A DNA stretch of 64,000 nucleotides from Xestospongia muta. Taxonomy: Eukaryota > Porifera > Demospongiae > Haplosclerida > Petrosiidae. How positions within the stretch are numbered: position 1 is the stretch's first letter; each line of letters begins with the position of its first letter. Positions 15,254 through 63,591 of the stretch are shown piece after piece. The notes beneath the pieces are model-generated. The model did not search any database. It was not told where the DNA came from and saw only the letters and a program-made list of their open reading frames with translations. The position numbers and the translations under genes are program-made. The DNA lies in NCBI GenBank assembly GCA_963693285.1, contig OY848920.1, positions 64,501 to 128,500 of the forward strand, written 5' to 3'.

Positions 15254-15376
15254 ATTTTTTAAAAAGAAGGTGGATAATAACGTCTTATATTTTAAGCCAC
15301 ACCTACTACTTATTATTGTTAGTTTTTCTTATCACATTTTATAGAATTGTTATATATTTTTCGATTAATAGACAAT
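15254..15376. promoter_or_regulatory. Shared divergent promoter, POT1 / TRAPPC3
   Basis: Only 123 bp separate the two divergent ATG codons. Both promoters and both 5' UTRs must fit here or overlap the genes. The stretch is AT-rich with a CCACACCT element. No TATA box is convincing. Confidence 0.6.
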
Positions 15377-17128: not shown

Positions 17129-17427
17129 TTGGGTACTTGGTTCAGTCTATTGTCTCATATATCACTAACTAACTAACTGTTTAATTCAAAACTTGTTTCT
17201 AGTATTTGTAATTATAACTATTAAAAGTAAAGAAACTATTATGACACGTTATTTTAAAAATGATATTGAAACAGTTAATGATGTTTTATTAGTGACATAT
17301 ACACACGTCAACATATTTTAACGTACTATTAATACTCAAATTCATAGGGTGTTTCCTCTATATAGCGAGCTGCTAACGAAGGATTATTTTCATTTTGAAA
17401 ATAAGGAAGATATTAACTGCTCTGAGA

Positions 17428-22447: not shown

Positions 22448-23303
22448 ATCATAACAATATTTGTTTTAAATACTTTGTAAACATTTATATATATATGTAA
22501 ATATTTACTTATTAATTTTTTATTGTTTGTGTGTTTATAATTAAGTTTTATAAAATCATGTTTGTTGTTTTATTTGAAATGATGAAGTTTTTTGGAATAT
22601 ATTTTGCACTGATTGAAAACATGCTAGTGAGTTACACATAGTCTTTTAATATCAATCTCTTTTTTCTACAATAAAGATAAAGAAAGGTTGCTAGGATTGA
22701 TTTATTATAATATTTGGCAGTTGTATACAACACAATCCACATTGTTAAAATGTTACTTTATTAACCTATGTAAGAATAATTTTTGACTAAAGCATACCAT
22801 TCAGTATGCAACTCTGTTACTAAGTTAAAGTTCACTTTCAGGAAGCAACAGCATTGCATTTCTGTATCTCCTAGCAACAATGTTACTCAGAACATAACAT
22901 TCAAACGTTTAGGCAGACATTTTTTATGACTCATGGTGAGTAGTTTTGACGTTTCAATTGTGGTATAGTGCCTAGAGCTACACATATTGTTGCACCAAAT
23001 ATAGGACTGTATTCTGTTTGGTGCAACAACATTACCAGGACCCTACTACATGTAACATGTATCTACTATCCACTGTACAATTTTATTACAAGCAACATGT
23101 TGTAATTGAATGTTTACAAAAAGTTGCACAGTTGATGGTAGTCTTAATATTTCATTTTAGCAATAAGAAAGTTAGGATTCATGTAGGCTGGGTCAAATGA
23201 ATCTGGTAATTGTTATGTTAATTGGTATACCACATTGTATTAATAAAAACTACGCAAGGATATCTCGTATTAGTGAGTCGTTGTATCTTTACTACTACAG
23301 TCT
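22448..23303. other. Intergenic spacer between the two p190-like genes
   Basis: This 856-bp spacer holds the 3' UTR of paralogue 1 (AATAAA at 22670-22675), a 13-bp inverted repeat at 22987-23029 and the promoter of paralogue 2. No further gene is supported. Confidence 0.7.
22987..23029. repeat. Stem-loop with 13-bp perfect arms
   Basis: TTGTTGCACCAAA (22987-22999) and its exact reverse complement (23017-23029) are separated by a 17-nt loop. It lies 275 bp upstream of the paralogue 2 ATG. It could be a hairpin RNA, a MITE remnant or a protein-binding palindrome. Confidence 0.7.
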
Positions 23304-26300
23304 ATGATGGCGCTTAAAGTGCACCGAGTGGTTGTAGTTGGTTGTCCTCGTTGTGTATTAACAGGAGATACTGGAAAAAGAGAAGGAGTTGGCAAAAGCT
23401 GCTTCTGCAATCGATTCGTAAGGCCTGACACATTCTCTTTGCATCACGATTCAGTTTTCAGTGAAAGAGAATGGCGAGATAACTCTGTGTACAATCAAGA
23501 CCACTTCATTTACTGGGGAGCGGCTACAAAGAGATTACAAGATGGTACTAGAGCTAGATTCCAAGTTGTAGAACAAACCGAATTCTACAATATAAATAAT
23601 GGAAATGTATCTTTCCCTGCAGAGGAAGATTACATCTCTAGAGCTTGTTCTACTCACTTTATCTCCAGAGGTAAAGTAGCATACAAGCTTCACAATGAAG
23701 AGGAATACACCATACCTAGTTCACTAAAGCATAAAGGTTCATTGCCTTCCCGAGCAACGCAGCTATTTCCAAATAATGAATTCAGTGAAGGGAAAGGAGT
23801 TACTGGTTTTATATGCTTATTTGACCCTACCTTACAAGGAGAAGACATTAAGCTTCAAGTTGACTTCCTTTCTAAACTCATCCAAGAACTTGTTAAAACT
23901 AAACGTAAGGTAATACTTGCCTGTACCAAATGTGATGAAGCTAATGAGGACCGAATACAACTTGGCGCCAACTTGGCAGCCACAGTCATTCCGAAGAAAC
24001 CAATTCCTTTTGTTCAGACATCGGCAAAGGAAGGTGTCAATATTGAAGATGTCTTTTTCCATGTCGTTAGCCCTAACAAAAAAAGGAGTTTTGCCCTAAA
24101 TAGTAAGAACACTCTTGCAGGTCTCCTGCCTACTTATTCTGAAGTTGTACTTTCTCGTGGTCACAATGAAACATATGCTATGAATACATTCAATCGTGTT
24201 ATAAAAGAAAGTGTTCAACAGTTTTCCACGGAATGGAGTGACATTTGGCCTTTTTTACAAAGTAACCCAGAATGTGTCAAAGCTGTTGAAGTTCTTGGTA
24301 TAGAGAAGGCACGTAAAATATTTTGCCAGCGTCTCATGGAGATCAAAGTCAATGAAGTACGAGAAACACATCCTAAAACTCGAAAATTAGACCAGCAACG
24401 AACGAAAAACATTCAGAGTGAGCTGATCGAAGCATTTAACGGCCATCCTGACTTGGGGTAAGTGTTAGAGTACATAGTTGTGATGTTATTGCAATTGTAA
24501 AAACAGTACAAGTAATGTGCTAATGTGTACTTATTAGTTGGATTCTGTTTGACACTAAACAGGGAAAGTATGTTAATAATAACATTTTTACTTATATTTT
24601 GGTGGTCTAATCAAACCTTGTCTGTACTCTATTAGGATTGATAGTGAAGAGTTGTAATTAAAATTTGAAGGAAGCAAGGATGCTACTAGTTGTTTTGATC
24701 ATGTAACTTTGTCCTTAAAATTAGTGTTAATAGTAAAGTCTTAAGTTACAGGTGGTATGCTCATAGCTAAAGTCCACGTAACAACAATAATAAAGGAAGC
24801 AAAGTTGATACAAATCTACTCTGTTAAACCACTTCTTGCTAATTAGCAATGTTATGTTGGCAACTGACACTTAAGATTACTTGACAGGTCTGCATTAGTT
24901 GTGTGACCAATTGGTTTAGTTGTAAAAACTTATGAGTAATATACAAGAGGTTTTGTTTAATAAGGTCTTCCTCCAGACACTATCACATAGTTGTACTGTA
25001 TGTCCTTTAATAAAAGGATATAATATATATGAGCAGGTACAAGACAAATAAGGTATATATATAAATGTGTGTGTGTACCAAGATGAGGTCAACTTCATAT
25101 GAACCTGACCACAGCTAGATACAATATAAGGTCTACCTCCAATTATGGTTTCTCTTTCAAGTGGGTAGGTTAAATCAACAATTTGATAGAGAAGCAAAAA
25201 AGTGTTATGCTAGTCTGGCAGTGTTAGGTGTTCATAGTAACAAATGGAGGAGGACAGTAGTTCAAGTTATATATTACAACTACTCACTTTTGAGGTATCA
25301 AGTGAATAATTGAACATAACATTTTGTAGTAAAAAAATTATTAAAGCACCAGGATCCATAATAAGAAATTTGACCTGAAGGTATTATTGGTATTGCAGGT
25401 TCAAATTAACCAAATATATGTGGTTTCCTTATATTCAATAAAATCATAACCACATATGGTAAAGACGATTAACATCATTTTACTATAACATGAACTATGT
25501 GGATATCCTGTCCATTTGTCAGTAAGAATGATCACATTTGTTTAAGGTGTAGAGACTCAAGTCATTTCTATAGAAGATTATTGGATATTCCCTATATTAG
25601 TATAGTTACTGTGATATCCATTACTATAATAGTGTTTGTTTAAAGATAAATATGCCAAAGGCACATGACACAATTGTTCAATTTACATGTACGTGCAATC
25701 CTGTGTGGAGTTGATGAATATTTTTTATTCATGTTGATCTTGAACACATAACAAAGGTATAGATCAGCTGACCTGACTGCTTATTTCAAATAGTCAGCTG
25801 TGTGGGAAACAAGTGTCCTTTGTAATTTTGTTACTGTATATTCCCAGGACACTGATCCTTGGAATGCTACTTATTTGTGTAGGGTGATGTTCACTTAATA
25901 CTGTATAAACATATAGCATGCCATGACTTGTTATAGTATAAGGGTAAATAGCTGTAACTCAATGATGAATATTAAACTATGCATAACATGAGTACAAACT
26001 CAAGAACACATTATTATTTCTTTTTGTTGTTTCTTTTGATAGGAGTGATTGTATGTATGACTTTGTGTACTCTCCAAGTCCGGCTAGTACACCTAAGAAT
26101 GGCAAATCCTCTTCATCTGATGCACCAACGCCTTCTGTTACACCATGTAATACTCCAATTAAAGGCTCAAGTGTTCCTGGTTCTTCGTCTGGTTTTTTCC
26201 CAAAGTCTCCGCCCCCTCCACCACCTACTAGTAGCATACCATCCTTGTCAATGGAAGGTACACCAACTAGAACAGCACTCTTTTCTCCAACTAGAACCAG

Positions 26301-47299: not shown

Positions 47300-50200
47300 T
47301 TAATTGAACTTAGCCTTACCACTCCCCCACACTGAAGTAGAAGTGGGTGTGGCTTTCCATTTAGTGGGGGTGGTAGTTTTAGTATCTTGTGGTATTCTTT
47401 GTATTGTAATAAACTCATCAGGATTACTGTCAGCATTATACAGTTGTAGTAACTGTTGTATAGCTTCTTCTTCAATCTAAAACAAATATAATATATACTG
47501 TTATATATAATGTTATATTAATTTTAATAGTAATTTTAAATGACAACAAAAACCACGTTACTTTGTTGTTTTTTAGATAGCAAATAAACAAGATGATCCT
47601 TATAGTAACATGAATAATGGTGTCATTTAAAAGAAAAAACTACAATTCAATCAATAATTTATAATATTACCTGTATCAATTGTAGTGGCTTCTTTAATGA
47701 TCTACATTGTTTAGTAAATAAAAAAAGATTTTAATATCTCTATTACAAATACTTGTATTTATAACATGTATTTATAATTTGTATTATTTATAACTTGTAT
47801 CTATAACTTACTTTTGTCGTGTTATTTTGTCCATTTCTTTTTGCTGATAATTTACGATATCAACAAATGACATACCTTGAGATGATTTTATTCTGTAACA
47901 TAATTACAACCTATACTTATTACATTATAAAATAATTTACTTCATTTCATTGGCTGTAACAGTGCTAGGACACTCATAGCTTAAAGAACGTTGTACAGGT
48001 AGTGAGGGTGATATCTTCTCTTCAGCTTCAGCTTCTGCCATTAATTCTCTTAATGATACGTGAGTTGTAGGAGAAGTAGTGTTAAGACCCCTTTATTATT
48101 ATTATATTATTATAATATATATTGTTAATTACCATGGATTTATTGGATCAGTAGGTAGAGTATCACTCCAGGTCCTTTCAAGTTGTTTAGATGTATCACT
48201 GAGATTATTATCAGGTCTATTTTAAAAGTTAGTATAACAATATTTTCTTACTTTACTTGGTGAACAGGTTTGACCAGTTTCTTTTTTTCAGTTTTCTTAT
48301 TTTCTTTTTCCTGTTGTTCAGCCATTATTTGTCTTAATGAATTATCTGAACTACTTACCAACAAAAATAAATGTAAAGCTGTTAATTACTGACCTTTGAC
48401 CTTTGACAGACCATGGACTAATATCTACATGTATTCCATTGGTCTTCTCTTGCTTTTCTTTGTTAAGTGATTCTAACGACAGGGGTTCCTCAATATTAAG
48501 GGGATGTTCCTCTATCACTGATTCAGGAGACATTGGTGGAGTATCAGTCACGTGACTAGGAGTAGAAGTCACATGACTTTTCTTATCTTCTCGACTAGTA
48601 CTTGATCTTCTTTTCTTTTTCTTACGTGAACTGCCAGTGGGTGTGTCCACCAGCGGAGACCTAATACATACTAGTTACTTAATTATTACATTTCAATAAT
48701 TACATACTTAGCTCTAGTAGCTCTAGTGGGTGTGGTCATATAGGTAGTCCTAGCATCACAATTATCCTCCTCAATATCTGATATTTCTATTATTTCATTC
48801 AGTAAATAGCTCTGCGGAAGTTCCTCAGTACTAGGCTCTATATAATGGTCATAATATTATAATACATTAACTATAATTTTATAGAAATAATACCTTGAGT
48901 ATCAATACTCCTCCCACCAACAGCTGAAAACTAAAAGGGATGTAACCATGACAACCACATAGAGCTCACCATGGTCTGATATGTTTGGGAGAGAAGGTCC
49001 AATGACGATGATATAAGTGGTTCTAACAATCCTCCTTCTAATAATACAGGAAGGTTAAGAGATATAAATTGCAAAGATGACTCTTGTAATTGTTCTGCAT
49101 TAAATGTTGAAGAGAACTCTAACATCTCAGCAACATTTCTAATATTCACTGTAAAGCAGAGAAATAGATAACTTTAAAATTTAAAACATTGACTGAGCAT
49201 ACAGCACTTGGCTAATGACTGCTCGCATATTGTCTTTAATCTTGATAGCAAAAACTATAATATTATTTCTTCTGAAAACAGCATAACAAGATTATAAAAC
49301 TGTTTTACCTGATCTGCTACTATAAGAGCAGAAGACAGCAGATCTGTAGAGTTTGATTCTGCAAAAAATAACGTGTAAAAAAAAAAAAAGAAGCTCCGAA
49401 GCGGGGAATCGAACCCCGGTCACCCGCGTGACAGGCGGGTATACTCACCACTATACTACTTCGGACAACTTATAGTCTAGATGGACATTATTGATAGTAA
49501 TTTTACCTAACAATGGAGCAGCTGTATCACTATATAAGTAATTGACAACTATTTCCATCAATTCAAAGACAATAGGTAAGTGTAATCTGGTCACTTTCTC
49601 CTCTGAAGTTGACTATAAGTAACAAAAATAATAATGACGTGTCATTTTACAACTGACCTCTCTCCATCCCCTCAATAACATACTTTGAAAATAATCTACA
49701 ATAATAATTATATTAACTATTTTATTTTATCACTAACTGACCAGAACGAGCTACTAAAACACACTTATGACAACCTATCTCTTTCCCTTCTTCAGTTACC
49801 AAGACAACATCATATGGGACAGAGTTTCGCTTCAATATTGGACAACCAAATGTGAGAGTCACGGGAGAAGGCTTTCCTTTACGAGACAATATAGACTCAA
49901 CACTATTAATAGATATTATAAGTTATACAATACATAAAACTATCTTACTTTTTAACTAGATGTTTCACTTTAAAAGTAGTGCCCAATAAATGAAGCATTT
50001 CCAAATCCTGAGTCCAAGTTGTTGTATTATGAATTCGTATTTCAATATTTCCTTTATATTTAGCGTTAGGACTTGTACTTTCTGGTGTCATTGTCTCCCC
50101 TTCTGTAACCTGTTGACTTAACAGGTCAAACGAGTTTTTTTCCAACCCAAACTGGTCATACAGGATATTCCAGTCTGTGGTTGTACTAGTATCCTCACCA

Positions 50201-50760
50201 CTTGTGTTATCCAAACTGGTTTTACTATTAGTTTGAGTAGGTGGGGACTCGAGTTGAACTGGTTTCGGAGATGACTCTGATGGCTGAATAATAGTCTGAC
50301 CTCCATACATATAATGAAGAAATAACTCAAATATAACTGAATTTTTAAAATCTAAGTCTATACTCCATTGTGAGTTAATGACAGAGAAAGACTTGATGAG
50401 GCTAGCCGAAGAGAGAGATAATGTTGAAGAGAATAAAGAAGAAAATACACTACTACATGAAGACAAAATAACAGAGTTTGCTATAAAGACAGAACCACTA
50501 ATCTGTAAAAGGAAAAAGGACTTTATGTGATCCATAAGTCATTGTACTTACATTAAATTGTACATCTGCCACAGTTCCTATAAAACCATTTTCAGATAAC
50601 AAATTATGTACATCAGTAGACAAAGTTGATGTCTCAACTAACGGCAGTGTAGTCGAGCTAAAAAACATGTAATAATATAATAATAATAATAATAATAATA
50701 ACAACAACAATAATAATAATAATAATAATAATAAGAATAATAAGAATAATAAGAATAATA

Positions 50761-50819
<59 letters not shown>

Positions 50820-53243
50820 GTACATGGTATAATAATACCTGTACACATTTTGTAGTACTGCTAAGTTCGTTGTCTTATAGTCAGTAAAGACTTTCTTTGC
50901 TTGCTGGATAAGTGGGACACGAGTAAGAGAAAGAAGTGATGGTGTTGTAGTTACAGGACCAGTATAAACTTCACCTTCTACTGTCACTATAGTTAAATTC
51001 TTTGTTAAACAGAAATGAGAAACTAGAGGAAAAAGTAGAGAGTAATATAAATAGTTTCTAGTGCTAGTACTAACCAGAACATTTTGTAGCGCCATTAATA
51101 ATTTGTGGGGGAACACAACCTTTTTTAGTATATTCTGTCCATTGACAAAACCACAACTAGAACAATACAGTTATTATGACATCATAGAGACCACACCCAA
51201 ATATTACCTGATGTTCTGAGTCTAATAAAGCAACAAGAAGACCACGCCCACTAGAAGTCTCTTTAGATTCCTTCTTTTTATTTTGTTTATGTTCCAATTC
51301 ACCAAGATTAGCACAGACACAGAATTGAATTACTGATAAAGACTCAGGAAAGTTATATCTGAAACAGAAAACAAGAGATAATAACATTATAACATTTACT
51401 CTTTCACAATACATCACTGATAAGTGATAACAATAATGTCCATTGTATCTCATGTGTGTGATTTACCTTTCACATCGTAGTACAATATAGTTAATACATA
51501 CAAATATTTGATGTCTTCTACTAGTGATGCAAGCAGTGGCACCATCACTAATTGATAAGTGATCAATACTGTCACCGTCATCAACAACAATACTAGTGAT
51601 CTAAAATATACACATATATAAATGTACATCATTACTGTTATCTTACTAGTTTTGGAGTCGTCTGCATTTCTAATGTTTTGACATAACCAAGTTGGCCTAA
51701 ATTTTTTCCACAACTATATACTTCAGTCATTGTACAGATTACTGTGTGATAACGTCCTGCTCCTATATATCGAATATGTTTTGATTTCAGTGCTTTAATT
51801 AGAGTTGGGGATACTACAACAGAACCTGCTTTAGACCCTACGCCAAGTTGATGAGCATCATTGATACCACAGGATAATACAACACCACTATATATAAAAA
51901 GTATATGGAGTTAGATATTGAACATATGTAGCTATATTTTAATTAATTACTCATTTCAATAGGGGCTAACTCTATGTTATAATGTACTTAATATATGTAC
52001 CTTTCAAGCAGAAATACACTGTGATTTCTTGCAGCTGCTACTTCTAAACATTTTTCAGTTCGTAAGCCTTCTATCAGTTTAGGTGACTAAACAATAATTC
52101 CAATTAAAAGTGGGATGAGTTATGGGCGTGGTTTTCTTACCACAACACTACGCTCATTGCCATGACCTAATCGTCCACCAGGTCCATGACCACAACTGTA
52201 GACACACCCACTTTCTGTTAATAAAAGTGTATGGAATTTACATAATACGACCTATATAAGAATGAATGAATAAAAGATGGATAAATGGATCAAAGTACTT
52301 GACTAATATTGCCGAGGGGTGGACTTGTTTCTAATAACTCTGGTGTAGACCGTGAGTGATCATGACCCAATGTCATGTTAACATTCATACCCCAAATATA
52401 AAGACACACCTCTGAGATAGCTATAGTGCATATTATAAGTACATTATTGCCATGGAAACGTGGACATACCTGGATATGTATCAATAAGATTGAGGTTAGC
52501 TTGCAGAATATTTAGTGGAGAAGACCCTTCATTATCTAGTAAGTTGATATTGGCACCAGCCTATCAAATAATAATAGTAACAAAAAATGTTTGGTTTATA
52601 TAATGACAAAATATTACAAATACTTAATTACATTTATTAAGGACTAGGTATTATAAATGTATTAAGCTGTGTAGTAATAGGTAGGAGGAAGTTGATACTA
52701 TATGTTGTTACCAACACAACCTACACATTAAAATATGAGGAAAAAATGGTCTTTTTACAAGACCAGTAGTGACATTATTGTATATACATTAAACAAAAAG
52801 GACAAACAGACAATGAAGGGTCTACCTTTACTAAAGCAACCATAACTCCTGGATGTCCATTATAAGCAGCACGATGCAGAGCAGACCAATGTGAATCAAC
52901 ATCAACTACATCTACATATATAGACCTCCTTTTCAATAACCACTCCACTAAACCTAAATGTCCCTTTGAAGCAGCCACATGTAATACATTACGACCAGCT
53001 TCATCACTAGAGTATTGAGAAATAGAGATAATATAAAAGAATACTGCACACACTCATAAAAATATACCTTATATTCCAAGGATTACCACATATTGTAGAA
53101 CAATGCTTGAGTAGATCTAAGTTACCCAAAGCAGCACATCGTAACACTATATTAGCATGAGGAAGATGCTGGCATTTACTAGTACAATCTAGAACTGTGT
53201 CGTGGGAGCAAGTGGAGGCTTTTTTATGCCTTTTGGCAGCCAT
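47300..53243 (-). CDS. IBTK: Inhibitor of Bruton tyrosine kinase homologue (ankyrin-RCC1-BTB-BTB)
   Basis: IBTK is a cullin-3 substrate adaptor with ankyrin repeats, RCC1 repeats and two BTB domains. The start is the ATG at 53243 and the stop is at 47300-47302. Near the N-terminus, DCTSKCQHLPHA matches human IBTK. Ankyrin repeats follow (GRNVLHVAASKGHLGLVEWLL, WSALHRAAYNGHPGVM), then RCC1 blades (VCLYIWGMNVNMTLGHDHS; GYGHGPGG-like and QLGVG elements at 51800-52240), BTB1 (about 50000-50530), BTB2 (VVLVTEEGKEIGCHKCVLVARS, about 49740-49810) and a basic/Ser-rich tail. The C-terminal EEEAIQQLLQLYN...PDEFITIQRIPQ matches the extreme C-terminus of human IBTK. Many short introns occur; one contains a tRNA gene and another AAT/AT microsatellites. 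A reverse-strand AATAAA at 47127-47132 lies inside the 3' UTR of the convergent gene, so the two transcripts probably overlap. The start lies 274 bp from a divergent RING gene. Confidence 0.95.
49394..49465 (-). tRNA. tRNA-Asp (anticodon GTC)
   Basis: The minus strand gives a 72-nt cloverleaf starting TCCGAAGTAGTATAGTGGTG and ending CCCCGCTTCGGAG. Acceptor arms TCCGAAG/CTTCGGA pair fully. The anticodon stem-loop CCGCCTGTCACGCGG shows GTC, the T arm has GGTTCGATTCC, and A and B box promoters are intact. A poly-T run follows on the minus strand as a Pol III terminator (plus-strand A run 49379-49389). It lies in an IBTK intron on the same strand. Confidence 0.97.
50671..50817. repeat. AAT trinucleotide run and (AT)n microsatellite in an IBTK intron
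   Basis: An AAT/AAC/AAG trinucleotide run (50671-50762) passes directly into about 50 bp of pure AT (50766-50817). Open frames across it are artefacts of the repeat. Confidence 0.95.
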
Positions 53244-53517
53244 AATGACAGGTTAGCAGCACTAGTGTGACGCCATAATCCACCTGATGTTGTGTGAGTA
53301 GTCCTATAACGTTGTTTAAAAAGCGCCGGCGCCAAATAACGAAACCACGCCTTCTGTATAGTTAATTTCATATGAGTGTGGTTTCAATTATAAGCCCCAC
53401 CCTTTTCTTCAATTACGTTACCGCATGTAATTTTAAGGGAACTCTCCTATTGTTAACAAGTGAGTTACATATTTTTCTTTGTTCATAAGTTTATTTTCTT
53501 AATAGATTGATAAAGAA
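53244..53517. promoter_or_regulatory. Divergent promoter, IBTK / RING-FN3-Gly-rich gene
   Basis: A 274-bp head-to-head spacer with a GC-rich island around AAGCGCCGGCGCCAAA (about 53320-53335). The island is a near-palindrome (GCGCCGGCGC) and includes an E2F-like GGCGCCAAA. Confidence 0.55.
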
Positions 53518-55740
53518 ATGCAGTGTCCACGTTGTAGAGACCATTACACAACTGAAGGTGATCTTCAGCCAAGGATTATCACCATATGTGGACATAGTTA
53601 CTGTCGAAAATGTATTAACATACTTCGTAAAGACTCTGGTGTCCTAACATGTCCACAATGTGGCCAGTTAAGTTATGAACCAGACGCACCTAATGTTGCA
53701 TTAATGAGTTATATTGCAGTCCAGAGTCAGAGAGCCAAACCACATAAAGTCCGTGAAATCAATGCACCACGACAAGCAATAGTCTGTCAACATTGTAACG
53801 AAAGGGAAGTAGCATTTATATGTTATCAATGTTTGACTATAGGCTTTCGATTTTGTCAACAATGTTCAGCTATTGAACATGACAGACCATTTGGTCCTGT
53901 CCGAGAACATAAGCCTATTCCTATAGAACAAGTGAAGTATGGTGCCATTTTACCAGATTGTCACCGACATCCCAATCGTGTCTGTGAACTTTTTTCATTT
54001 GTCGAGAATCGATTTGCTTGTGAAGAATGCGTACATGATTTCGATTACTCTCCAGAGTTGTTTGTTGATATTGAGACTGCTGTCCTTGATGTTCGTAAGA
54101 GCCTTCCTCCTCTTATGAGTAGAATGTCTACTATAAGAGATCGCCTTCAATCTACTCAAGAAAAGTTATCGGAGCAGCTTGGACGTATGGATCAAGCCAA
54201 ATTGACTGCCATTGACAAAGTGAGAGTTGAGTTTCAAGATTTTGAAATGTCTTTGAGGAAGAGACTTGCCTTTGTTGAGTCACAAGTTGAAGAAGTGGTA
54301 AGAAATATGGAATAATTTAATTTTCACTATTAGTAATTATTTGAGTAATTATTTGAGTAATGCACTTTTGTAAGGGGTCTTTCCTGTGTAAAGTGTACAT
54401 AATTAATTGATGTCATAGTAAGTAATAATTATGTTTATTTTATATAGGCCAGTAATCAGAAGAATTTAGTTAATGAGCAGTTGGAGCGAGTTGAAGTAGC
54501 ATTAGGATCAACAGCAACTTGTCTGATTCAAGCTAATATGCTTAACCAAATGCAGGATTATAGTTTATTACAAAAGGCAGCTACCATTTTGGAACAGATG
54601 AAGACACAGATTACTGATCTCCATGACGACGACCTTAGCGAACCTGTAGTATCAACAGAAATTTCAATTCATGTCACACCTGAATTTCAAACAGCTATTA
54701 ACGAGCTTGGATTAGTAGGAGGAGGACAAACACCACAAGAATTCACATGTTCTACTGACGCTGGTATGGTTCTCTTGACGTGGACAACAAGAGAAAAAGG
54801 AATTTTAGAATACGAAATAGTTTGTGATTTAGTCTTTACTGAACCAGATGATCCAGCTATGACGTCATCTCCAAATCAACCTTTTCCTCGACATTATACT
54901 GTTGATAAGAAAACTGAGAAACGAATTGATAACCTGTTTCCCGGAAAAAAATACCGGTTCCGTATCCGAAGTCGTAACAGTAGTGGGTGGGGCTGGTGGA
55001 GTCCTTCAATTTATGGGACCACTCCTGATTTTCCATTAGAAATTGGTTATATTGGTGAGATAGTTAAATTACCATTACCATGTGATGGTCTTTATCGTAT
55101 TATTGCAAAAGGAGGTAAGGCAGCTGACGGAGAGAAGAAGAAGGGTGGTAGTGGTGCTATAATCGAGGCCAGTTTTTTCTTAAGTAAGAATGATTTTCTT
55201 GAAATACTAGTTGGAGGTATGTCTGATAGAAAAGGTCCCTGTAGCGGTGGTGGTGGTGGCACGTTTGTTGGTCTTAATGGACGACAGGATCTTTTAATAG
55301 CTGCTGGAGGAGGAGGAGGGACACGTGGATATGAGGATGAGGATCAACATGGTAAAGATGCTAACACCACTCCTAATGGACTTGGAGGCCATGGAGAACA
55401 GTGGGCTGCCGGAGGTAATAGTGGTAAATCTGGACGAGATGCTATCTGGACTGGACCCTGTTGGGGTTATGGTGGAGCTGGACACGTTGAAAACTCAACT
55501 TCTGCTCAATCATTTGTAGCTGGAGGCACTGGTGGTGAAGGAGGAGGATTTGGTGGCGGTGGTGCTATTGGTGCCTATGGGGGTGGAGGAGGTGGTGGAT
55601 ACTCTGGTGGGGGAGGGGGACGAGGTGGTGGAGGAGGAGGAAGTTATGTCAGAGAAGATGGTTTAGAAGTCATGAGAAGTACAGGAAATGAAGACAATGG
55701 AATAGTTATTATTGAGAAAATCAAGGAAGCTGAGAAATAA
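53518..55740 (+). CDS. TRIM-like E3 ligase with FN3 and ALK-type glycine-rich domain (copy 1)
   Basis: Two exons (53518-54297, 54448-55740) join in phase to 690 residues. A perfect C3HC4 RING uses C3, C6, C24, H26, C29, C32, C45 and C48, so it should be an E3 ubiquitin ligase. Cys/His-rich B-box-like modules follow (CQHCN...CYQC...CQQCSAIEHDRPF; then CHRHPNRVCELF...CEEC). A coiled coil covers about residues 185-325. An FN3 domain occupies about 355-452 (KKYRFRIRSRNSSGWGWWS). Residues about 457-687 resemble the glycine-rich domain of ALK/LTK: strand core GLYRIIAKGGKAADG, GSGAIIEASFFLSKNDFLEI, then GGGGGTFV, LLIAAGGGGGTRG, PCWGYGGAG and a long Gly run with single Tyr and Arg, closing in a strand (NGIVIIEKI). 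No signal peptide or membrane span, so it is cytosolic or nuclear. AATAAA lies at 55874-55879. Confidence 0.9.
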
Positions 55741-56197
55741 TTTTAGATGTACTAATTTTTTATGCAACTATTTTACGTGTACTTATTACATAACTTTCTG
55801 GTTGTCATAGCAACATAGATTCCCAATTTCCAACATGTTTTTTACATGTAACAATTCATTTGAATTAATAGTAAATAAAATAATATACAAAATAATATGT
55901 ATATTATTATTATAATAGAATAAATTGTTTATCATAAATTCTACCAATAAAGTTCAGTACTGCCCAGTATAACAGAGCCTTCTAAAAATCCTCGACTGGA
56001 TCCTCATGAGTAAATGAAAAACAGCTTTACTTGACATAATTGTCAAGTATTAACTGCAAAATTAAGAAATTAATGACTCATATAATTGAGTCATAATTAG
56101 AGGAGTGTCTCCAAAACAGAGATCTAATGAGAGCCTCATGATAAATTTGAGTCTTCATTGAATTAAAAAAGAACTTGATATTGTTAGAGACTTGGAT
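55741..56197. other. Tail-to-tail spacer with two perfect hairpins
   Basis: Between the convergent RING genes lie TACTTGACA-TAAT-TGTCAAGTA (56028-56049, 9-bp arms) and ATGACTCA-TATAAT-TGAGTCAT (56073-56094, 8-bp arms; each arm an AP-1-like TGACTCA). They may be 3'-end hairpins or protein sites. No gene is seen. Confidence 0.65.
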
Positions 56198-58464
56198 TTA
56201 ATTGAGACCAGTGCTAGTGGGAGAGGTCTCAATGGGAATAGTGCTACCACTCGCATTATCTTTAATAAGTGTCATTGAAATCAATGGGTCTAGATCTTGA
56301 CTAAGACGCTCAATTGAAACATAACCATTTCCATCATTTTCAACCTTCTTAGTAACATTTCTAGCCTTCTCACTCACATAACTTCCACCTCCTCCTCCAC
56401 CACGTCCACCGCCTCCACCAGAAAACCCTCCTCCTCCTCCACCTCCCAGGAAACCAACACCTCCACCTCCACCATAACCTCCACACTGTCCACCTTCCAG
56501 ACCTTCATTGTAACATTTAGCAGTTTTAGAACTTTTACTAAAACCAGCTCCACCATGACCCCAACAAGGTCCTTGATAAGAAGCCAAGTTAGCATCCATA
56601 CCAGGAAATCCATCTCGTCCTCCCTTGCCGTGCTCCTTCCCACGTCCGTCTTTGCCTGAAGGTTCCAAACTTGCGTCACATCCGTCTTCATCCTGGTCAT
56701 CATATCCTCGAGTTCCTCCACCACCCCCGGCTACAACAAGGAGATTTTCAACTTTAGCAGAACTGCCTTCACGTATTAAAACAAATGTCCCTCCACCGCC
56801 TCCTGAGTGACCCTCTGGTCCCATTTGTGACATCCCACCAACAGCCACTTCAATTCTATCATTGAGTTGAAGACTAAAAACAGCTGAAATCACAGCACCT
56901 TGTCCACCTTTGAACTCTTTACCTCCATCAGCAGCTTTAGCACCTGCAGAAGTAATACGATACTCACCAGACTCAGGGATCATTATAGATACTTTTTCAC
57001 CAGTAAATGGAATACGTACAGGAAATCCTTCAAAACGACCAGTAATACTTTTACTCCACATGCCCCAACCAGCAATACTACGAGAACGGACTCTAAAACG
57101 ATACCGATATCCCGGATATAAATCATTCATTACATGAGCTTGAGCTTTGCCTGATTTTGGTACAACCATTGGTTTAGATTGGTGCATATCAATGGGACCA
57201 GTATTATTAGGACTTGGGGGCCGTCCATCAGGGACGTGTTCATATTCAATTTCATACTGATTAACATTAACTTCAGTGGCATAAGAAGGTAACGCCCACG
57301 ATAATTGAGGTAAAGTCGATTGCTGATGAGGCACTTTATGACATACTAAATTTTGAGGAACGGGACCACCTCCAACAGCTCCGTGGTTAGACAGTTCTTG
57401 ATCCATATTAGTCCGGAAAAAACATGGAATATCGCCAGGGGCAACAGGTCTTAAAAGGCTACTGTCTTCAATGACCATGAAATTCATAACTCCATCCATA
57501 ACATGAGCATAACCACGAAGGAAGTCAGCATTAGATTTTTGTAGCAGCGTCTTGAGATTTTCATGATGGCCGCTCAAGACTCCAGAGTGATGAAGTATGC
57601 TTTGTTTCTGCTTCTCAATATTTTCCTTCCGACTTGCATACTAAAAAAATAAATAAAATAAGAATATTGATATGATAATTTGCTAACCTCTTCTTCGACT
57701 CGATGTATTAATGCTTGTTGACGTTGCTGTAAAACCTCAGCTAATTTCGAAAACTCCGCCAATATTAACACTTTAGCGGCACTGGCTGATTCTGATAACT
57801 TAAACAACATCATCTCTAATTCTCTCTGAGTATCATAAAGCGATTTCATTGTGTTATTACAGTGATAGTTAACTTTTCCTGCTCTAATCCTCATACGCTC
57901 AGCAGCATCCTCAACATGAAGAAAATTTTGAGATCTTTCAGGCCAGTCTATTTCCTTATGACACTGGATACAGGCAAACTGGTTTATCTTCTCGGAATAA
58001 TGCGTAGCTGATGTTCCAGAGTGACGGGAACACATTATTGTAAAATCGTATTCTTGTAAAGGGACTCTACGATGAAGTCGGACAGGTTTAAAAGCTCGGT
58101 CATGTTCTAGTTTATCACAATCGGTACAAAATTTAACACCTAAAGGTGAACAGGACACACATACAACAGATGCAGGTGCAACACAACATGCCTCACAATA
58201 ATCATTTTGAGGTTCAGGTTGTGGTTGACTCACAACAGCTAACATATCTAATATACCATAATTAATAGGGATACGAGAAACTTCGGAAAACGTCACTCTG
58301 GTACTGGTAGAACAAAAAGGACAAAGTATAGCATCGTTACGTAAACATTGATTCAAACACGAATGACAAAAAGTATGTCCACAATTCAAAACACGAGGCA
58401 CCCTATCAGAAGCTAGTCCGTAATCCAATGTGCATATACTGCATTCCAAAAATATGCCAGTTGG
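56198..58464 (-). CDS. TRIM-like E3 ligase with FN3 and ALK-type glycine-rich domain (copy 2)
   Basis: Exon 57688-58464 joins exon 56198-57640 in phase, giving about 739 residues from the acceptor at 58464. No ATG lies in frame after the acceptor near the RING. The start must be in an upstream exon; one candidate is an ATG at 58611-58609 followed at once by a GTAAAA donor. The architecture equals copy 1: C3HC4 RING (CSICTLDYG...CGHTFCHSCL...CPFC), B-box-like zinc modules (CEACC...CTDCDKLEHDRAF; CHKEIDW), coiled coil, FN3 (GYRYRFRVRSRSIAGWGMWS) and the glycine-rich domain (GEYRITSAGAKAADG, GAVISAVFSLQLNDRIEVAVGG, LLVVAGGGGGTRG, PCWGHGGAG, Gly run, NGYVSIERL). About 40 extra residues follow. 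It is diverged from copy 1, so that duplication is old. A recent partial duplicate lies at 61908-64000. Confidence 0.87.
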
Positions 58465-59307
58465 CTATAGTGAAGATACAATGTTAAGATAATAAGATAA
58501 GCAAGGGACTATACCTATGACACATCATGTGGCCATATAGAAGACTATGAACTGTATTATAGTGGTAATATTACTTAATAAGTCATGATTTATATTATAA
58601 GGTTTTACCATGATCAGGTGATCTAAGCTCTGCCTACTTTTATTATTCAGGACAATAGCTACTACACATATACATATGATAGTATTGTATTACATTAATG
58701 TAGTAAGTTGTAGTAATAATGTCTGGAGTACCAGTAATGACGTGGGGACAAGTAACACTAATTGTAGACACAATAAAATAAAATATTGTAGTATAGAATT
58801 TATTACTATCTCAATAAAATTTGACATTTCTTAGAAGCACTTGAGATATTACAATTCAAAAAACAACTATACATTAAATTTGCTGTAAAACAGTTCCTCA
58901 AACATCAGTATAACTTGTAAAGACAGTCTTTTAAGCAACACTTTATAACCACACTAAAAATTCATACAATGACATATATTATTACAAAATAATTTAACAC
59001 TTCGTATATTGTCTAATTACTTACAACAGGGTTAGTCATATTGAATAAATTGCCAGCCAAATAAGTTAGTTAAAGCAGCCAGGGTGTCTTCTCTTGTCAT
59101 CTACTGATGTAACCTCTCGCCTCCCCAAACTTTCTGCGCATGCGCAATAGCTCTTCGGGGGTAAGTATAGCGAGTTAATTAAATTTATCTCTATTATATT
59201 TCTATACAAAATTTAGCATCTTTCCAGTATACAAGTTTGTTCTTTTCCGTATATTGTAACCTTTTGTACTTGACCTACGCTCCAACACCCCCTCAGATAA
59301 AGAAGAC
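58465..59307. other. Spacer between RING gene copy 2 and PFK
   Basis: This 843-bp stretch must hold the 5' exon and promoter of the minus-strand RING gene and the promoter of PFK. Its left 409 bp (58465-58873) recur at 63592-64000. The part near 59140 (CTGCGCATGCGCAATAG, 59138-59154) has an NRF1-like GCGCATGCGC palindrome about 160 bp before the PFK ATG. Confidence 0.6.
59138..59154. promoter_or_regulatory. NRF1-like site upstream of PFK
   Basis: TGCGCATGCGCA is a perfect 12-bp palindrome matching the NRF1 consensus, in an otherwise AT-rich region. NRF1 controls metabolic genes in animals; use here is inferred. Confidence 0.55.
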
Positions 59308-61662
59308 ATGGCAAGTACTCAACGCCCCAGCTTGACAAAACGTGTCTCGTTTCACTCTCAACTTACTGACGGAGGCCAAAGCCCAACAGAAAAATGTATC
59401 GCTGTTTTTACAAGTGGAGGAGACTCGCAAGGAATGAATGCAGCTCTGAGAGGTGTGGTAAGAATAGCGATTTATAAGGGACTGAAAGCCTTTTCAGTTA
59501 ATGAAGGGTACAAAGGTTTGGTTGAGGGAGGTGACCATATCAAAGAGTGTCAGTGGGGGTCTGTTTCTTACATTTTACATCGGGGTGGGACTGTTATTGG
59601 GACAGAACGTTGTAAAGAATTCAGGGAACAAGAAGGTCGGTTGAAAGCTGCTGAAAACCTTATAAAAAAGGGTATTAATAATTTAGTTATTATCGGTGGA
59701 GACGGAAGTTTAACTGGTGCAAACATTTTTAAAAATGAATGGACAGAATTACTTGATAAACTACTTGTACAAGGCCGTATCACTTCAGAACAAGCAGATA
59801 ATTTCCCCTATTTGAACATTGTGGGTTTAGTAGGTTCTATTGATAATGACATGTGTGGTACTGACATGACCATTGGTACCGACTCTGCTTTACATCGTAT
59901 TGTTGAGGCAATGGATTGTCTCTCCAGCACTGCTTCAAGTCATCAGAGAAGCTTTGTTATGGAAGTGATGGGAAGACACTGTGGGTATTTGACGTTAATG
60001 GCTGGTATCGCAGGTGGTGCAGACTGGATACTTATTCCAGAGAATCCTCCGAGACATGGATGGGAGGATGCAATGTGTACCAAGTTAAAACAATGTCGAA
60101 ATCTTGGAAGACGACTCAATTTTGTGTTAGTTGCTGAAGGAGCTGTTGACATAAATAACAAGAAGATAACACCAGAGTATGTCAAAGAAGTCATCGAGGC
60201 TAAACTGGGTTATGATACACGTATTACAGTTCTGGGGCATGTTCAACGTGGGGGCAAACCCTCAGCTTATGACAGAGTGTTGGGGTCTAGAATGGGAACA
60301 GCAGCTGCACTAGTGCTAGCACGAGCTGAAGGAGAAATTGATCCCGTTATGATAGCGTTACAAGGAAATGAAATTGTCGAGGCACCACTCATGGAATGTG
60401 TTGAGAAGACCCACAGTATTGACAAAGCTTTAAAAGAATGTCAGTTTGATCAAGTGCGTGAGCTTCGTGGAGAGAGTTTCCTAAATAATATCAAAATATT
60501 GAAAAAGCTTGAAGCATGCTCGGGCCCAGAATGTAAAGATGACACTTTCTCCGATACTCCTAATTACACAATAGCTGTAATGAATGTTGGTGCCCCAGCA
60601 TGTGGTACCAATAGTTGTACGCGTTCCTTTGTTCGCTTACTTTTATATCATAACCATACAGTCCTTGGTATACATGAAGGTTTTGTTGGCTGTGTTAAAG
60701 GAAATATTGACAAGATGACTTGGTCTGGCGTTAGTGAATGGGGTTCTTTGGGTGGATCCAATTTGGGGACGAATCGTGATCAACCAACAGATGACACCTT
60801 GCCAGAAATAGCAGCAAAATTTGAAGAACATGGTATTCAAGGTCTACTTGTGATTGGAGGATTTGATGCATTTGAGAGCCTTTTAATACTCGAAGAAGCG
60901 CGTTCAAAGTATCCAGCATTTCGTATCCCTATTCTCCAAGTTGCTGCTACTATTAGTAACAATGTTCCAGGTACAGAGTATAGTTTAGGATGTGATACAG
61001 CACTTAATGTCATCGTATCGGCTTGTGATGTGTTGAAACAGTCTGCTACTGCTAGTAGAAAACGGGTTTTTGTTGTCCAAACCATGGGAGGTTACTGTGG
61101 TTACCTAGCAACTATGGGAGGTCTTGCTGGAGGTGCTGACAGTGCTTATATTTTTGAGGAACCATTTAGTCGCTCAGATTTACAACATGACCTCGACTTT
61201 TTAGTAGGAAAGTTTCGTGAAGGCTACCTTGAACGAGGAATCATTATTCGTAATGAAAACTGTAACGAAAACATAACAACCGAACTTATGACACAAATGT
61301 TATCTGAAGAAGGGAAGGACTTCTTTATTTCTAGAAGCAACGTGTTAGGTCATCTTCAGCAAGGAGATCGTCCCAGTCCATTTGACCGGATACTTGGCTC
61401 TAAATATGCCTCACATGCTATGTCACACCTTCTCTCTCAAATTGGTGCTTATGCTGATAGCGAAGGAGGTTTGAGGGTTTCTACTCCTGACACTGTCTGC
61501 GTTTTGGGACTCATAGGAATTCAATACGTAGCCACACCTGTCTCTACTTTAAAGGAGTCTAGTGATATGGTACATCGTATTCCTAATAAACAATGGTGGA
61601 TGCAGCTCCGCCCACTAGTACGTGTTCTTTCACGACACGTTGAGCTGAGAGACTCATCGTGA
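59308..61662 (+). CDS. PFK: ATP-dependent 6-phosphofructokinase, animal two-lobe type, intronless
   Basis: The enzyme phosphorylates fructose 6-phosphate to fructose 1,6-bisphosphate, the committed step of glycolysis, in the cytosol. The frame has 784 residues; human PFKM has 780. The N-terminal catalytic lobe has the ATP loop TSGGDSQGMNAA (35-46), GGDGSLTG (130-137), the catalytic SIDNDMCGTD with Asp179, MGRHCGY, and HVQRGG. The C-terminal regulatory lobe has GAPACGTNSC in place of the ATP loop, IGGFDAFE, ATISNNVPG, MGGYCGYLATM, EEPF and HLQQGDRPSPFDR, ending in HRIPNKQWW...LRPL as in animal enzymes. All catalytic residues I can check are present. There is no intron in 2.35 kb, in a locus where most genes have many; retroposition is possible, although no poly(A) tract or flanking repeat marks it. 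It lies between two direct copies of a RING gene. Confidence 0.98.
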   Translation: MASTQRPSLTKRVSFHSQLTDGGQSPTEKCIAVFTSGGDSQGMNAALRGVVRIAIYKGLKAFSVNEGYKGLVEGGDHIKECQWGSVSYILHRGGTVIGTERCKEFREQEGRLKAAENLIKKGINNLVIIGGDGSLTGANIFKNEWTELLDKLLVQGRITSEQADNFPYLNIVGLVGSIDNDMCGTDMTIGTDSALHRIVEAMDCLSSTASSHQRSFVMEVMGRHCGYLTLMAGIAGGADWILIPENPPRHGWEDAMCTKLKQCRNLGRRLNFVLVAEGAVDINNKKITPEYVKEVIEAKLGYDTRITVLGHVQRGGKPSAYDRVLGSRMGTAAALVLARAEGEIDPVMIALQGNEIVEAPLMECVEKTHSIDKALKECQFDQVRELRGESFLNNIKILKKLEACSGPECKDDTFSDTPNYTIAVMNVGAPACGTNSCTRSFVRLLLYHNHTVLGIHEGFVGCVKGNIDKMTWSGVSEWGSLGGSNLGTNRDQPTDDTLPEIAAKFEEHGIQGLLVIGGFDAFESLLILEEARSKYPAFRIPILQVAATISNNVPGTEYSLGCDTALNVIVSACDVLKQSATASRKRVFVVQTMGGYCGYLATMGGLAGGADSAYIFEEPFSRSDLQHDLDFLVGKFREGYLERGIIIRNENCNENITTELMTQMLSEEGKDFFISRSNVLGHLQQGDRPSPFDRILGSKYASHAMSHLLSQIGAYADSEGGLRVSTPDTVCVLGLIGIQYVATPVSTLKESSDMVHRIPNKQWWMQLRPLVRVLSRHVELRDSS

Positions 61663-61907
61663 GAAATCTCAAGATGCACTCGACACTTTAAATACTGAGA
61701 AGAATACAAGTCTGTTTCAAGACAAACACTAATGGGTACCTCCCCTAATAATGATTGGCCTAATTATGGGGATGACCCTGTTAGCTAGTTTCAATAAGAT
61801 ATAAAAGAACAATGTAGTGTATTGTTATCTGAATTATAATATAGTGAATACAATATAGTATTGTATCTAAAAACAAATTAAACATTCATAGAATGATAGA
61901 AAAGACA

Positions 61908-63591
61908 ACAAATGTCCCTCCACCGCCTCCTAAGTGACCCTCTGGTCCCATTTGTGACATCCCACCAACAGCCACTTCAATTCTATCATTGAGTTGAAGA
62001 CTAAAAACAGCTGAAATCACAGCACCTCATCCACCTTTGAATCCTTTACCTCCATCAGCAGCTTTAGCACCTGCAGAAGTAATACGATACTAACCAGACT
62101 CAGGGATCATTATAGATACTTTTTCACCAGTAAATGGAATACGTACAGGAAATCCTTCAAAACGACCAGTAATACTTTTACTCCACATGCCCCAACCAGC
62201 AATACTACGAGAACGGACTCTAAAACGATACCGATATCCCGGATATAAATCATTCATTACATGAGCTTGAGCTTTGCCTGATTTTGGTACAACCATTGGT
62301 TTAGATTGGTGCACATCAATGGGACCAGTATTATTGGGACTTGGGGGCCGTCCATCAGGGACGTGTTCATATTCAATTTCATACTGATTAACATTAACTT
62401 CAGTGGCATAAGAAGGTAACGCCCACGATAATTGAGGTAAAGTCGATTGCTGATGTGGCACTTTATGACATACTAAATTTTGAGGAACGGGACCACCTCC
62501 AACAGCTCCGTGGTTAGACAGTTCTTGATCCATATTAGTCCGGAAAAAACATGGAATATCGCCAGGGGCAACAGGTCTTAAAAGGCTACTGTCTTCAATA
62601 ACCATGAAATTCATAACTCCATCCATAACATGAGCATAACCACGAAGGAAGTCAGCATTAGATTTTTGTAGCAGCGTCTTGAGATTTTCATGATGGCCGC
62701 TCAAGACTCCAGAGTGATGAAGTATGCTTTGTTTCTGCTTCTCAATATTTTCCTTCCGACTTGCATACTAAAGAAATAAATAAAATAAGAACATTGATAT
62801 GATAATTTGCTAACCTCTTCTTCGACTCGATGTATTAATGCCTGTTGACATTGTTGTAAAACCTCGGCTAATTTCGAAAACTCCGCCAATATTAACACTT
62901 TAGCGGCACTAGCAGATTCAGATAACTTAAACAACATCATCTCTAATTCTCTCTGAGTATCATAAAGCGATTTCATTGTGTTATTACAATGATAGTTAAT
63001 TTTTCCCGCTCTAATCCTCATACGTTCAGCAGCATCCTCAACATGAAGAAAATTTTGAGATCTTTCAGGCCAGTCTATTTCCTTATGACACTGGATACAG
63101 GCAAACTGGTTTATCTTCTCCGAATAATGCGTAGCTGATGTTCCAGAGTGACGAAAACACATTATTGTAAAATCGTATTCTTGTAAAGGGACTCTACGAT
63201 GAAGTCGTACAGGTTTAAAAGCTCGGTCATGTTCTAGTTTATCACAATCGGTACAAAATTTAACACCTAAAGGTGAACAGGACACACATACAACAGATGC
63301 AGGTGCAACACAACATGCCTCACAATAATCATTTTGAGGTTCAGGTTGTGGTTGACTCACAACAGCTAACATATCTAATATACCATAATTAATAGGGATA
63401 CGAGAAACTTCGGAAAACGTCACTCTGGTACTGGTAGAACAAAAAGGACAAAGTATAGCATCGTTACGTAAACATTGATTCAAACACGAATGACAAAAAG
63501 TATGTCCACAATTCAAAACACGAGGCACCCTATCAGAAGCTAGTCCGTAATCCAATGTACATATACTGCATTCCAAAAATATGCCAGTTGG
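61908..63591 (-). pseudogene. Partial nonsense-bearing duplicate of the RING-FN3-Gly-rich gene (copy 3)
   Basis: The exons correspond to 62815-63591 and up to 62767, collinear with copy 2 at a constant offset of 5127 bp. RING, B-box, coiled-coil and FN3 regions stay open and nearly identical (replacements such as Ser to Phe in the CxRHSG segment, Arg to Cys in the coiled coil). At the start of the glycine-rich domain a GAG codon has become TAG (62090-62092), and further on a Gln codon reads TGA (62027-62029). Homology stops at 61908, so about 190 residues of the domain and the original 3' end are missing. If transcribed, it would give a RING-B-box-FN3 protein without the glycine-rich domain. 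I call it a pseudogene, with a truncated functional paralogue as the alternative. Confidence 0.8.

What the first reader, a model, noticed from the sequence alone, without database searches (positions are those of the whole stretch)
53518..58464. TRIM-like E3 ligases carrying an ALK/LTK-type glycine-rich domain
Two divergent paralogues combine C3HC4 RING, B-box-like zinc modules, coiled coil, FN3 and a C-terminal ~230-residue domain whose strand core and glycine blocks follow the ALK/LTK glycine-rich domain. In ALK/LTK that domain is extracellular and binds cytokines. Here there is no signal peptide or membrane span, so it would work inside the cell as the substrate or ligand-sensing end of an E3 ligase, in the position where TRIM proteins carry SPRY or NHL domains. 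Both copies keep the same non-glycine core (e.g. AAGGGGGTRG/VAGGGGGTRG and PCWGYGGAG/PCWGHGGAG) despite divergence elsewhere, which argues for selection on a fold rather than drift of a low-complexity tail.
Basis: partly seen in the sequence, partly recalled or inferred. Interest (0 to 1): 0.88.

Follow-up and report, generated by a model that had tools for sequence, protein, structure and literature searches.

The report
TRIM-like ubiquitin ligases with ALK-type domain
Two neighbouring genes in a sponge-like genome encode probable ubiquitin ligases whose C-terminal end looks like the signal-catching domain of the ALK and LTK cell-surface receptors, and relatives show this domain attached to other types of ubiquitin ligase as well, including in green algae.

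Summary

The GRD does not group with ALK/LTK. It falls on a separate branch (100/97), marked by GGGGTRG and usually DxDGxDAS, together with BTB-BACK proteins (one from the green alga Coccomyxa) and one incomplete HECT protein: three ubiquitin-ligase classes. Best explanation: the GRD is the substrate- or ligand-binding end of an intracellular E3. Architecture is shown by sequence and models; function is inferred. A third, truncated copy of B was missed.

The parts
53518..54297 (+). gene A exon 1: start codon, RING, B-box 1, second B-box-like module, start of coiled coil (260 aa)
   Evidence: open frame and splice donor; Pfam RING above cut-off; TRIM32 RING in PDB E 2.8e-5
53521..53667 (+). gene A RING (C3HC4)
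   Evidence: Pfam zf-RING_UBOX 31.8 bits, cut-off 25.2; coordinates
53785..53910 (+). gene A B-box 1 type zinc module
   Evidence: eight Cys/His positions invariant in 7 of 7 aligned sequences; Pfam zf-B_box 15.4 bits, below cut-off 24.1
53959..54030 (+). gene A second B-box-like module (four ligands C-H-C-C kept)
   Evidence: coordinates
54298..54447 (+). gene A intron (GT..AG, phase 0)
54448..55740 (+). gene A exon 2: coiled-coil end, FN3, GRD, stop
54739..55026 (+). gene A FN3
   Evidence: Pfam fn3 27.7 bits, cut-off 25; coordinates
55027..55719 (+). gene A glycine-rich domain (residues 454-684)
   Evidence: 105.1 bits to a profile of other GRDs, shuffles at most 13.7; coordinates
55321..55365 (+). 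gene A TRG motif and acidic loop (departs from DxDGxDAS: DQHGKDAN)
59025..59039 (-). probable first exon of gene B (MTNPV, GTAAGT donor)
   Evidence: best-scoring phase-0 candidate; resembles N-terminus of P0005; prediction only
57688..58464 (-). gene B exon 2: RING, B-box 1, second B-box-like module, coiled coil
   Evidence: Pfam RING 34.8 bits, cut-off 27.9; PDB TRIM23 RING E 4.6e-12
58309..58446 (-). gene B RING (C3HC4)
58072..58197 (-). gene B B-box 1 type zinc module
57961..58032 (-). gene B second B-box-like module
57691..57915 (-). gene B predicted coiled-coil helices (start)
   Evidence: helices at residues 184-222 and 225-258 of a moderate model
56198..57640 (-). gene B exon 3: coiled-coil end, FN3, GRD, tail, stop
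57032..57355 (-). gene B FN3
   Evidence: Pfam fn3 37.8 bits, cut-off 25
56306..57028 (-). gene B glycine-rich domain, ALK/LTK fold
56663..56713 (-). gene B TRG motif and acidic loop TRGYDDQDEDGCDASLE
61907..63591 (-). truncated copy of gene B (GRD cut off, in-frame stops)

Best explanation
A and B are TRIM-like (RBCC) RING ubiquitin ligases of an intracellular kind. The RING recruits a ubiquitin-charged E2, the coiled coil makes a dimer, FN3 is a spacer or docking module, and the C-terminal GRD, in the ALK/LTK fold, binds the substrate or a ligand that marks it, the job that SPRY, NHL or Kelch domains do in other E3s. The GRD belongs to an old eukaryotic branch of the fold, separate from the receptor branch, that has been joined to E3 parts at least three ways: RING-B-box-coiled coil-FN3, BTB-BACK (CUL3 adaptor type) and HECT. 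Shown by sequence or model: architecture, fold, branch, gene structure. Inferred: ligase activity, dimerisation, location in the cell, and substrate binding by the GRD, most likely on a face near the conserved DxDGxDAS loop.
Against: Neither window copy reaches the Pfam ALK_LTK_GRD cut-off of 24.5 bits: B has 14.2 bits, A is not listed at E 1; of the full-length relatives P0005 and P0026 are not listed for it at E 0.1 and P0023 has 17.5. In the PDB profile search the LTK and human ALK matches rest on the first 60-100 residues; the glycine block alone is not significant in the alignments shown. B-box and TRIM_CC models are below cut-off wherever listed. The RBCC model is moderate (pLDDT 73.6, pTM 0.34, 7 sequences). 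In pair B-P0005, FN3 (77%) is better kept than the GRD (72%), and without glycine RING and B-box 1 are too. One hydropathy window in B reaches 1.8, inside B-box 1. One incomplete HECT-GRD protein is a thin basis for the third class. No substrate, ligand, activity or location data. The GRD fold also occurs in phage and giant-virus proteins, so the fold alone does not say what it binds. Gene A departs from the acidic motif.
Confidence: 0.7

Rival explanations
1. The GRD is an assembly module, not a substrate receptor: its TNF-like core and polyglycine helices oligomerise the ligase, and FN3 or the coiled coil chooses the target.
Against: The RBCC already dimerises in TRIMs (recalled). In the HECT protein the GRD is N-terminal (residues 138-372 of 975), in the BTB and RBCC proteins it is C-terminal: each time the end where substrate domains sit.
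Confidence: 0.15
2. They are immune sensors: the GRD binds a microbial or viral surface molecule that reached the cytosol and the RING then marks it, as TRIM21 or TRIM5 do.
For: TRIM-like architecture. Related folds in phage and giant-virus proteins. In other assemblies different family members are listed with the same longest-contig length, for example P0076, P0078 and P0084 at 1186303 bases, which suggests tandem families.
Against: Only two intact copies found in this genome, within the limits of the search. The GRD tends to be the best-kept domain, not the fastest changing (5 of 6 pairs), unlike TRIM5-type restriction factors (recalled). No expression data.
Confidence: 0.2
3. The C-terminal part is a low-complexity glycine tail and the ALK/LTK likeness is composition.
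For: High glycine content; weak Pfam scores of the window copies; glycine-only matches such as antibody linkers among the weaker PDB hits.
Against: Glycine-preserving shuffles score at least 86 bits lower; confident fold whose significant PDB matches are ALK/LTK alone; conserved non-glycine core.
Confidence: 0.02
4. The proteins are receptors or secreted, with the GRD outside the cell as in ALK/LTK.
For: The solved animal GRDs of this fold are receptor ectodomains. Two exon-only ORFs of relatives, P0160 and P0167, begin with a hydrophobic stretch, which I read as upstream non-coding sequence; not tested.
Against: No hydrophobic N-terminus in A, B and the complete relatives checked; B's one window above 1.6 lies inside the zinc-binding B-box 1. 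RING and B-boxes are cytosolic modules. The most conserved Cys column of the GRD is kept in 48 of 66 rows, so no disulfide is general.
Confidence: 0.02

Closest known systems
ALK/LTK extracellular TNF-like plus glycine-rich domain (PDB 7nx1, 7nx0, 7lrz, 7lir)
   Different: No receptor, membrane span or kinase; no generally kept cysteine; has GGGGGTRG where human ALK and LTK have AGGGGRAY; own branch of the tree
TRIM class with RBCC-COS-FN3-SPRY (MID1, TRIM9, TRIM67; class recalled)
   Same: RING, tandem B-box-like modules, predicted coiled coil and FN3 in the same order; NCBI names the Dysidea relative Midline-1-like
   Different: The SPRY position holds a GRD; no SPRY match in either protein at E 1; the second B-box keeps only four ligands
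BTB-BACK-Kelch proteins (CUL3 adaptors)
   Same: In P0124, P0143 (Coccomyxa), P0144 and P0145 a GRD of the same kind follows BTB-BACK
   Different: The window genes have RBCC-FN3 instead of BTB-BACK
Phage and giant-virus glycine-rich proteins
   Different: No E3 parts known to me; apart from the top two hits (33 and 29% identity) lower TM-scores

Membership tests
ALK/LTK-type GRD fold | TNF-like beta core plus polyglycine-helix block, fold match to ALK/LTK | tested here: met
ALK/LTK-type GRD fold | Pfam PF12810 curated cut-off reached by the window copies | tested here: not met
   B 14.2 of 24.5 bits, A not listed; relative P0015 25.6 bits; 48 of 77 members scanned match at E 0.01 or less
ALK/LTK-type GRD fold | Sequence homology beyond glycine composition | tested here: met
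   (0 of 200 glycine-preserving shuffles for each of A and B)
ALK/LTK receptor family | Signal peptide, membrane span, kinase | tested here: not met
   no kinase at E 1; no hydrophobic N-terminus
ALK/LTK receptor family | Binds ALKAL-type cytokines | not testable with these tools
   needs binding assay
TRIM / RBCC | RING at the N-terminus | tested here: met
TRIM / RBCC | One or two B-boxes | tested here: inconclusive
   B-box 1 ligands invariant in 7 of 7 sequences and tandem B-box folds matched, but Pfam scores below cut-off and only four ligands kept in the second
TRIM / RBCC | Coiled coil after the B-boxes | tested here: inconclusive
TRIM class with FN3 and SPRY | FN3 | tested here: met
TRIM class with FN3 and SPRY | C-terminal SPRY | tested here: not met
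   none at E 1 in the Pfam scan; GRD in its place
TRIM class with FN3 and SPRY | COS box | not tested
   -
Active E3 ligase | Ubiquitin transfer | not testable with these tools
   needs in vitro assay

The most novel reading that the evidence does not exclude
There is an ancient intracellular branch of the ALK/LTK-type domain, marked by GGGGTRG and DxDGxDAS, that serves eukaryotes as an interchangeable target-recognition module of ubiquitin ligases (RBCC, BTB-BACK, HECT). Animals' ALK/LTK receptors use only a distant cousin of it for cytokines, and its conserved acidic loop is a binding or metal site.
Probability: 0.5. Interest if true: 0.85.

Novelty: new variant of a known kind. Interest (0 to 1): 0.74.

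Why it matters
The GRD is best known from two human receptor kinases, where its origin and its glycine-helix architecture are a puzzle (recalled). Finding the same fold on the likely target end of three types of ubiquitin ligase, from a green alga to sponges, gives the domain a second, intracellular life and a clear, testable role. It adds a candidate recognition module to the short list (SPRY, NHL, Kelch, MATH) that E3s use, and it offers a conserved loop to mutate.

Tried and rejected
Low-complexity tail: rejected by shuffles and fold. Separate transcripts: rejected by single-protein relatives. Descent of the domain from ALK/LTK receptors: not supported; 39 rows stand apart from 28 other GRD rows, which include ALK and LTK (100/97). 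The root is not inferred, so the direction of descent is open.

Limits of that comparison. The tree used 24 of the RBCC-FN3-GRD relatives plus the two window copies and left out P0145, whose best GRD piece was under 150 residues. Four rows were picked because they carry the TRG motif, so its presence in 39 of 39 is partly selection. Among all 194 proteins with a GRD match 169 have GGGGG[TV]R[GD]; of the 25 without it, 12 are the other-type proteins and 13 belong to the RBCC-FN3-GRD search results. A looser GGGGxR also occurs in 6 of the 28 other rows. The 28 other rows come from 12 proteins found by a search with a family member plus ALK and LTK, so they are not a random sample of GRDs, and they are not proven extracellular row by row. 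The group I call sponge-type has one named organism, Dysidea avara; the other rows are unnamed contigs and one transcript (P0026), so that label, and the window's own assignment to a sponge, is inference.

A Pfam-family search of the own genome found nothing, even though the window holds the domain, and its control genomes gave nothing either, so it says nothing.

Literature: ten searches listed no paper whose title or abstract start speaks of a GRD in an E3 ligase. Several of the lists were capped (20 of 7,395, 15 of 955) and only open-licence papers are held, so earlier work may exist. The ALK/LTK structure papers were not held. Read by passages only: PMC8242945 (its TRIM hits were words such as trimming) and PMC10605310. 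All others were seen as search listings only.
Full report
Observation. Gene A (53518-55740, +) and gene B (56198-58464, -) lie tail to tail. Each has an exon with RING, B-box-like zinc modules and the start of a predicted coiled coil, and a second exon with FN3 and the glycine-rich domain; both introns are in phase 0. A has its own ATG. B needs an upstream exon; MTNPV at 59039-59025 with a GTAAGT donor is the best candidate and resembles the N-terminus of relative P0005. RING and FN3 pass Pfam cut-offs in both. A third copy of B, cut off inside the GRD and with stops, lies at 63591-61907 in a 5.13 kb, 97.6% identical tandem duplication that also copies the phosphofructokinase gene.

Is the C-terminal domain real? 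Direct Pfam evidence for the window copies is weak: ALK_LTK_GRD scores 14.2 bits for B (cut-off 24.5) and is not listed for A at E 1. Among 77 family members scanned (the two window exons and 75 of the 120 proteins listed), 48 match it at E 0.01 or less and 73 match fn3; 14 of the 120 listed carry it precomputed. A profile of 10 family GRDs finds LTK, ALK and scd-2 as its first 9 of 15 PDB hits (E 1.8e-5 to 3.8e-4); the LTK and human ALK matches rest on the first 60-100 residues, and the next hits, a Tet4 variant at E 0.001 and antibody fragments, are matches to glycine runs. A profile made only from other GRDs (28 rows: 26 from 12 proteins found, among them a coral protein, plus human ALK and LTK) gives A 105.1 and B 107.3 bits, against shuffle maxima of 13.7 and 20.6 when glycines stay in place, 0 of 200 reaching the real value in each case. 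A coral GRD used as query finds B at E 1.9e-8 and A at 1.4e-7 in the genome, and nothing else.

Wider family. Starting from one relative (P0124, itself BTB-BACK-GRD), a search found BTB-BACK-GRD proteins in Coccomyxa subellipsoidea (P0143, a green alga), in a record with the prefix Chlat1 (P0144, probably Chlorokybus, recalled), in P0145, and in fragments (P0146, P0147, P0155), and one HECT-GRD protein (P0161) whose HECT match is incomplete (positions 35-206 of 306). The GRD rows of these proteins without P0145, the window genes, their relatives, two proteins with a PA domain and four others (39 rows) form one side of a branch with support 100/97 against 28 other GRD rows, and the result is the same when the signature columns are dropped. 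The RBCC-FN3-GRD rows (26) are one group (99/92); the BTB rows are not (3 changes). GGGG[TV]R[GD] is in 39 of 39 and 0 of 28 rows (partly by selection, see Tried and rejected); DxDGxDAS-type loops after it are in 32 of 39 and 0 of 28. Window gene A is among those that depart from the loop. An autotransporter-domain protein (P0190), with a TRS..QDGTDAS version, is the nearest outsider.

How it most likely works. In all three E3 classes the GRD sits where substrate domains sit: after FN3 in RBCC proteins, after BTB-BACK, and before HECT. The GRD is the best-kept domain in 5 of 6 pairs compared among A, B, P0005, P0023 and P0026 (A-B: 54%, against 19-34% elsewhere); in B-P0005 FN3 is better kept (77 against 72%), and with glycine positions left out the GRD leads in 4 of 6 pairs. 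The complete proteins show no hydrophobic N-terminus; B has one window at 1.8 inside B-box 1, and single internal windows above 1.6 occur in some relatives, including at the broken end of P0161. The inference is an intracellular E3 whose GRD recognises the substrate, or a ligand that marks it. What it binds is unknown. That the fold binds cytokines in ALK/LTK and also occurs in phage and giant-virus proteins shows only that it is a versatile binding platform.

Limits. No expression, activity or location data; most relatives are unnamed contigs; the HECT case is one protein; the tree is unrooted; the literature held is open-licence only and its lists were capped.

Noticed in passing
56780-61895 and 61907-67040 (second unit runs past the window; L004): 5.13 kb tandem duplication, 97.6% identical, carrying part of gene B and a phosphofructokinase gene; the B copy lost most of its GRD.
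   Followed up: yes
59260-61662 (+) and L004 2811-5450 (+): The two phosphofructokinase copies differ at the C-terminus: the first ORF ends early (a small length difference near 61650), the second runs on into a hydrophobic C-terminal tail (WVPPLIMIGLIMGMTLLASFNKI), which looks like a membrane tail anchor and would be unusual for this enzyme.
   Followed up: partly
49945-53252 (-): Exons with ankyrin repeats, RCC1 repeats and a BTB domain, an IBTK-like gene (a CUL3 adaptor, recalled), head to head with gene A, whose ATG is about 270 bases away.
   Followed up: partly
P0190 (protein): Autotransporter-domain protein whose GRD carries a TRS..QDGTDAS version of the signature and is the nearest outsider of the E3-linked branch; a possible lead on the origin.
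   Followed up: no
BFVD hits: GRD-fold proteins in phages and in algal giant viruses (Pyramimonas orientalis virus, Tetraselmis virus 1); the top hit A0A0P0YMU3 has 33% identity to gene B's GRD.
   Followed up: no
13043-15328 (-): ORF with POT1 and POT1PC domains, a telomere-protection protein.
   Followed up: no
17377-24458 (+): Two ORFs with Ras-like pieces, the second also with a p190 RhoGAP FF1 match below cut-off; they may be tandem p190RhoGAP-type genes.
   Followed up: no
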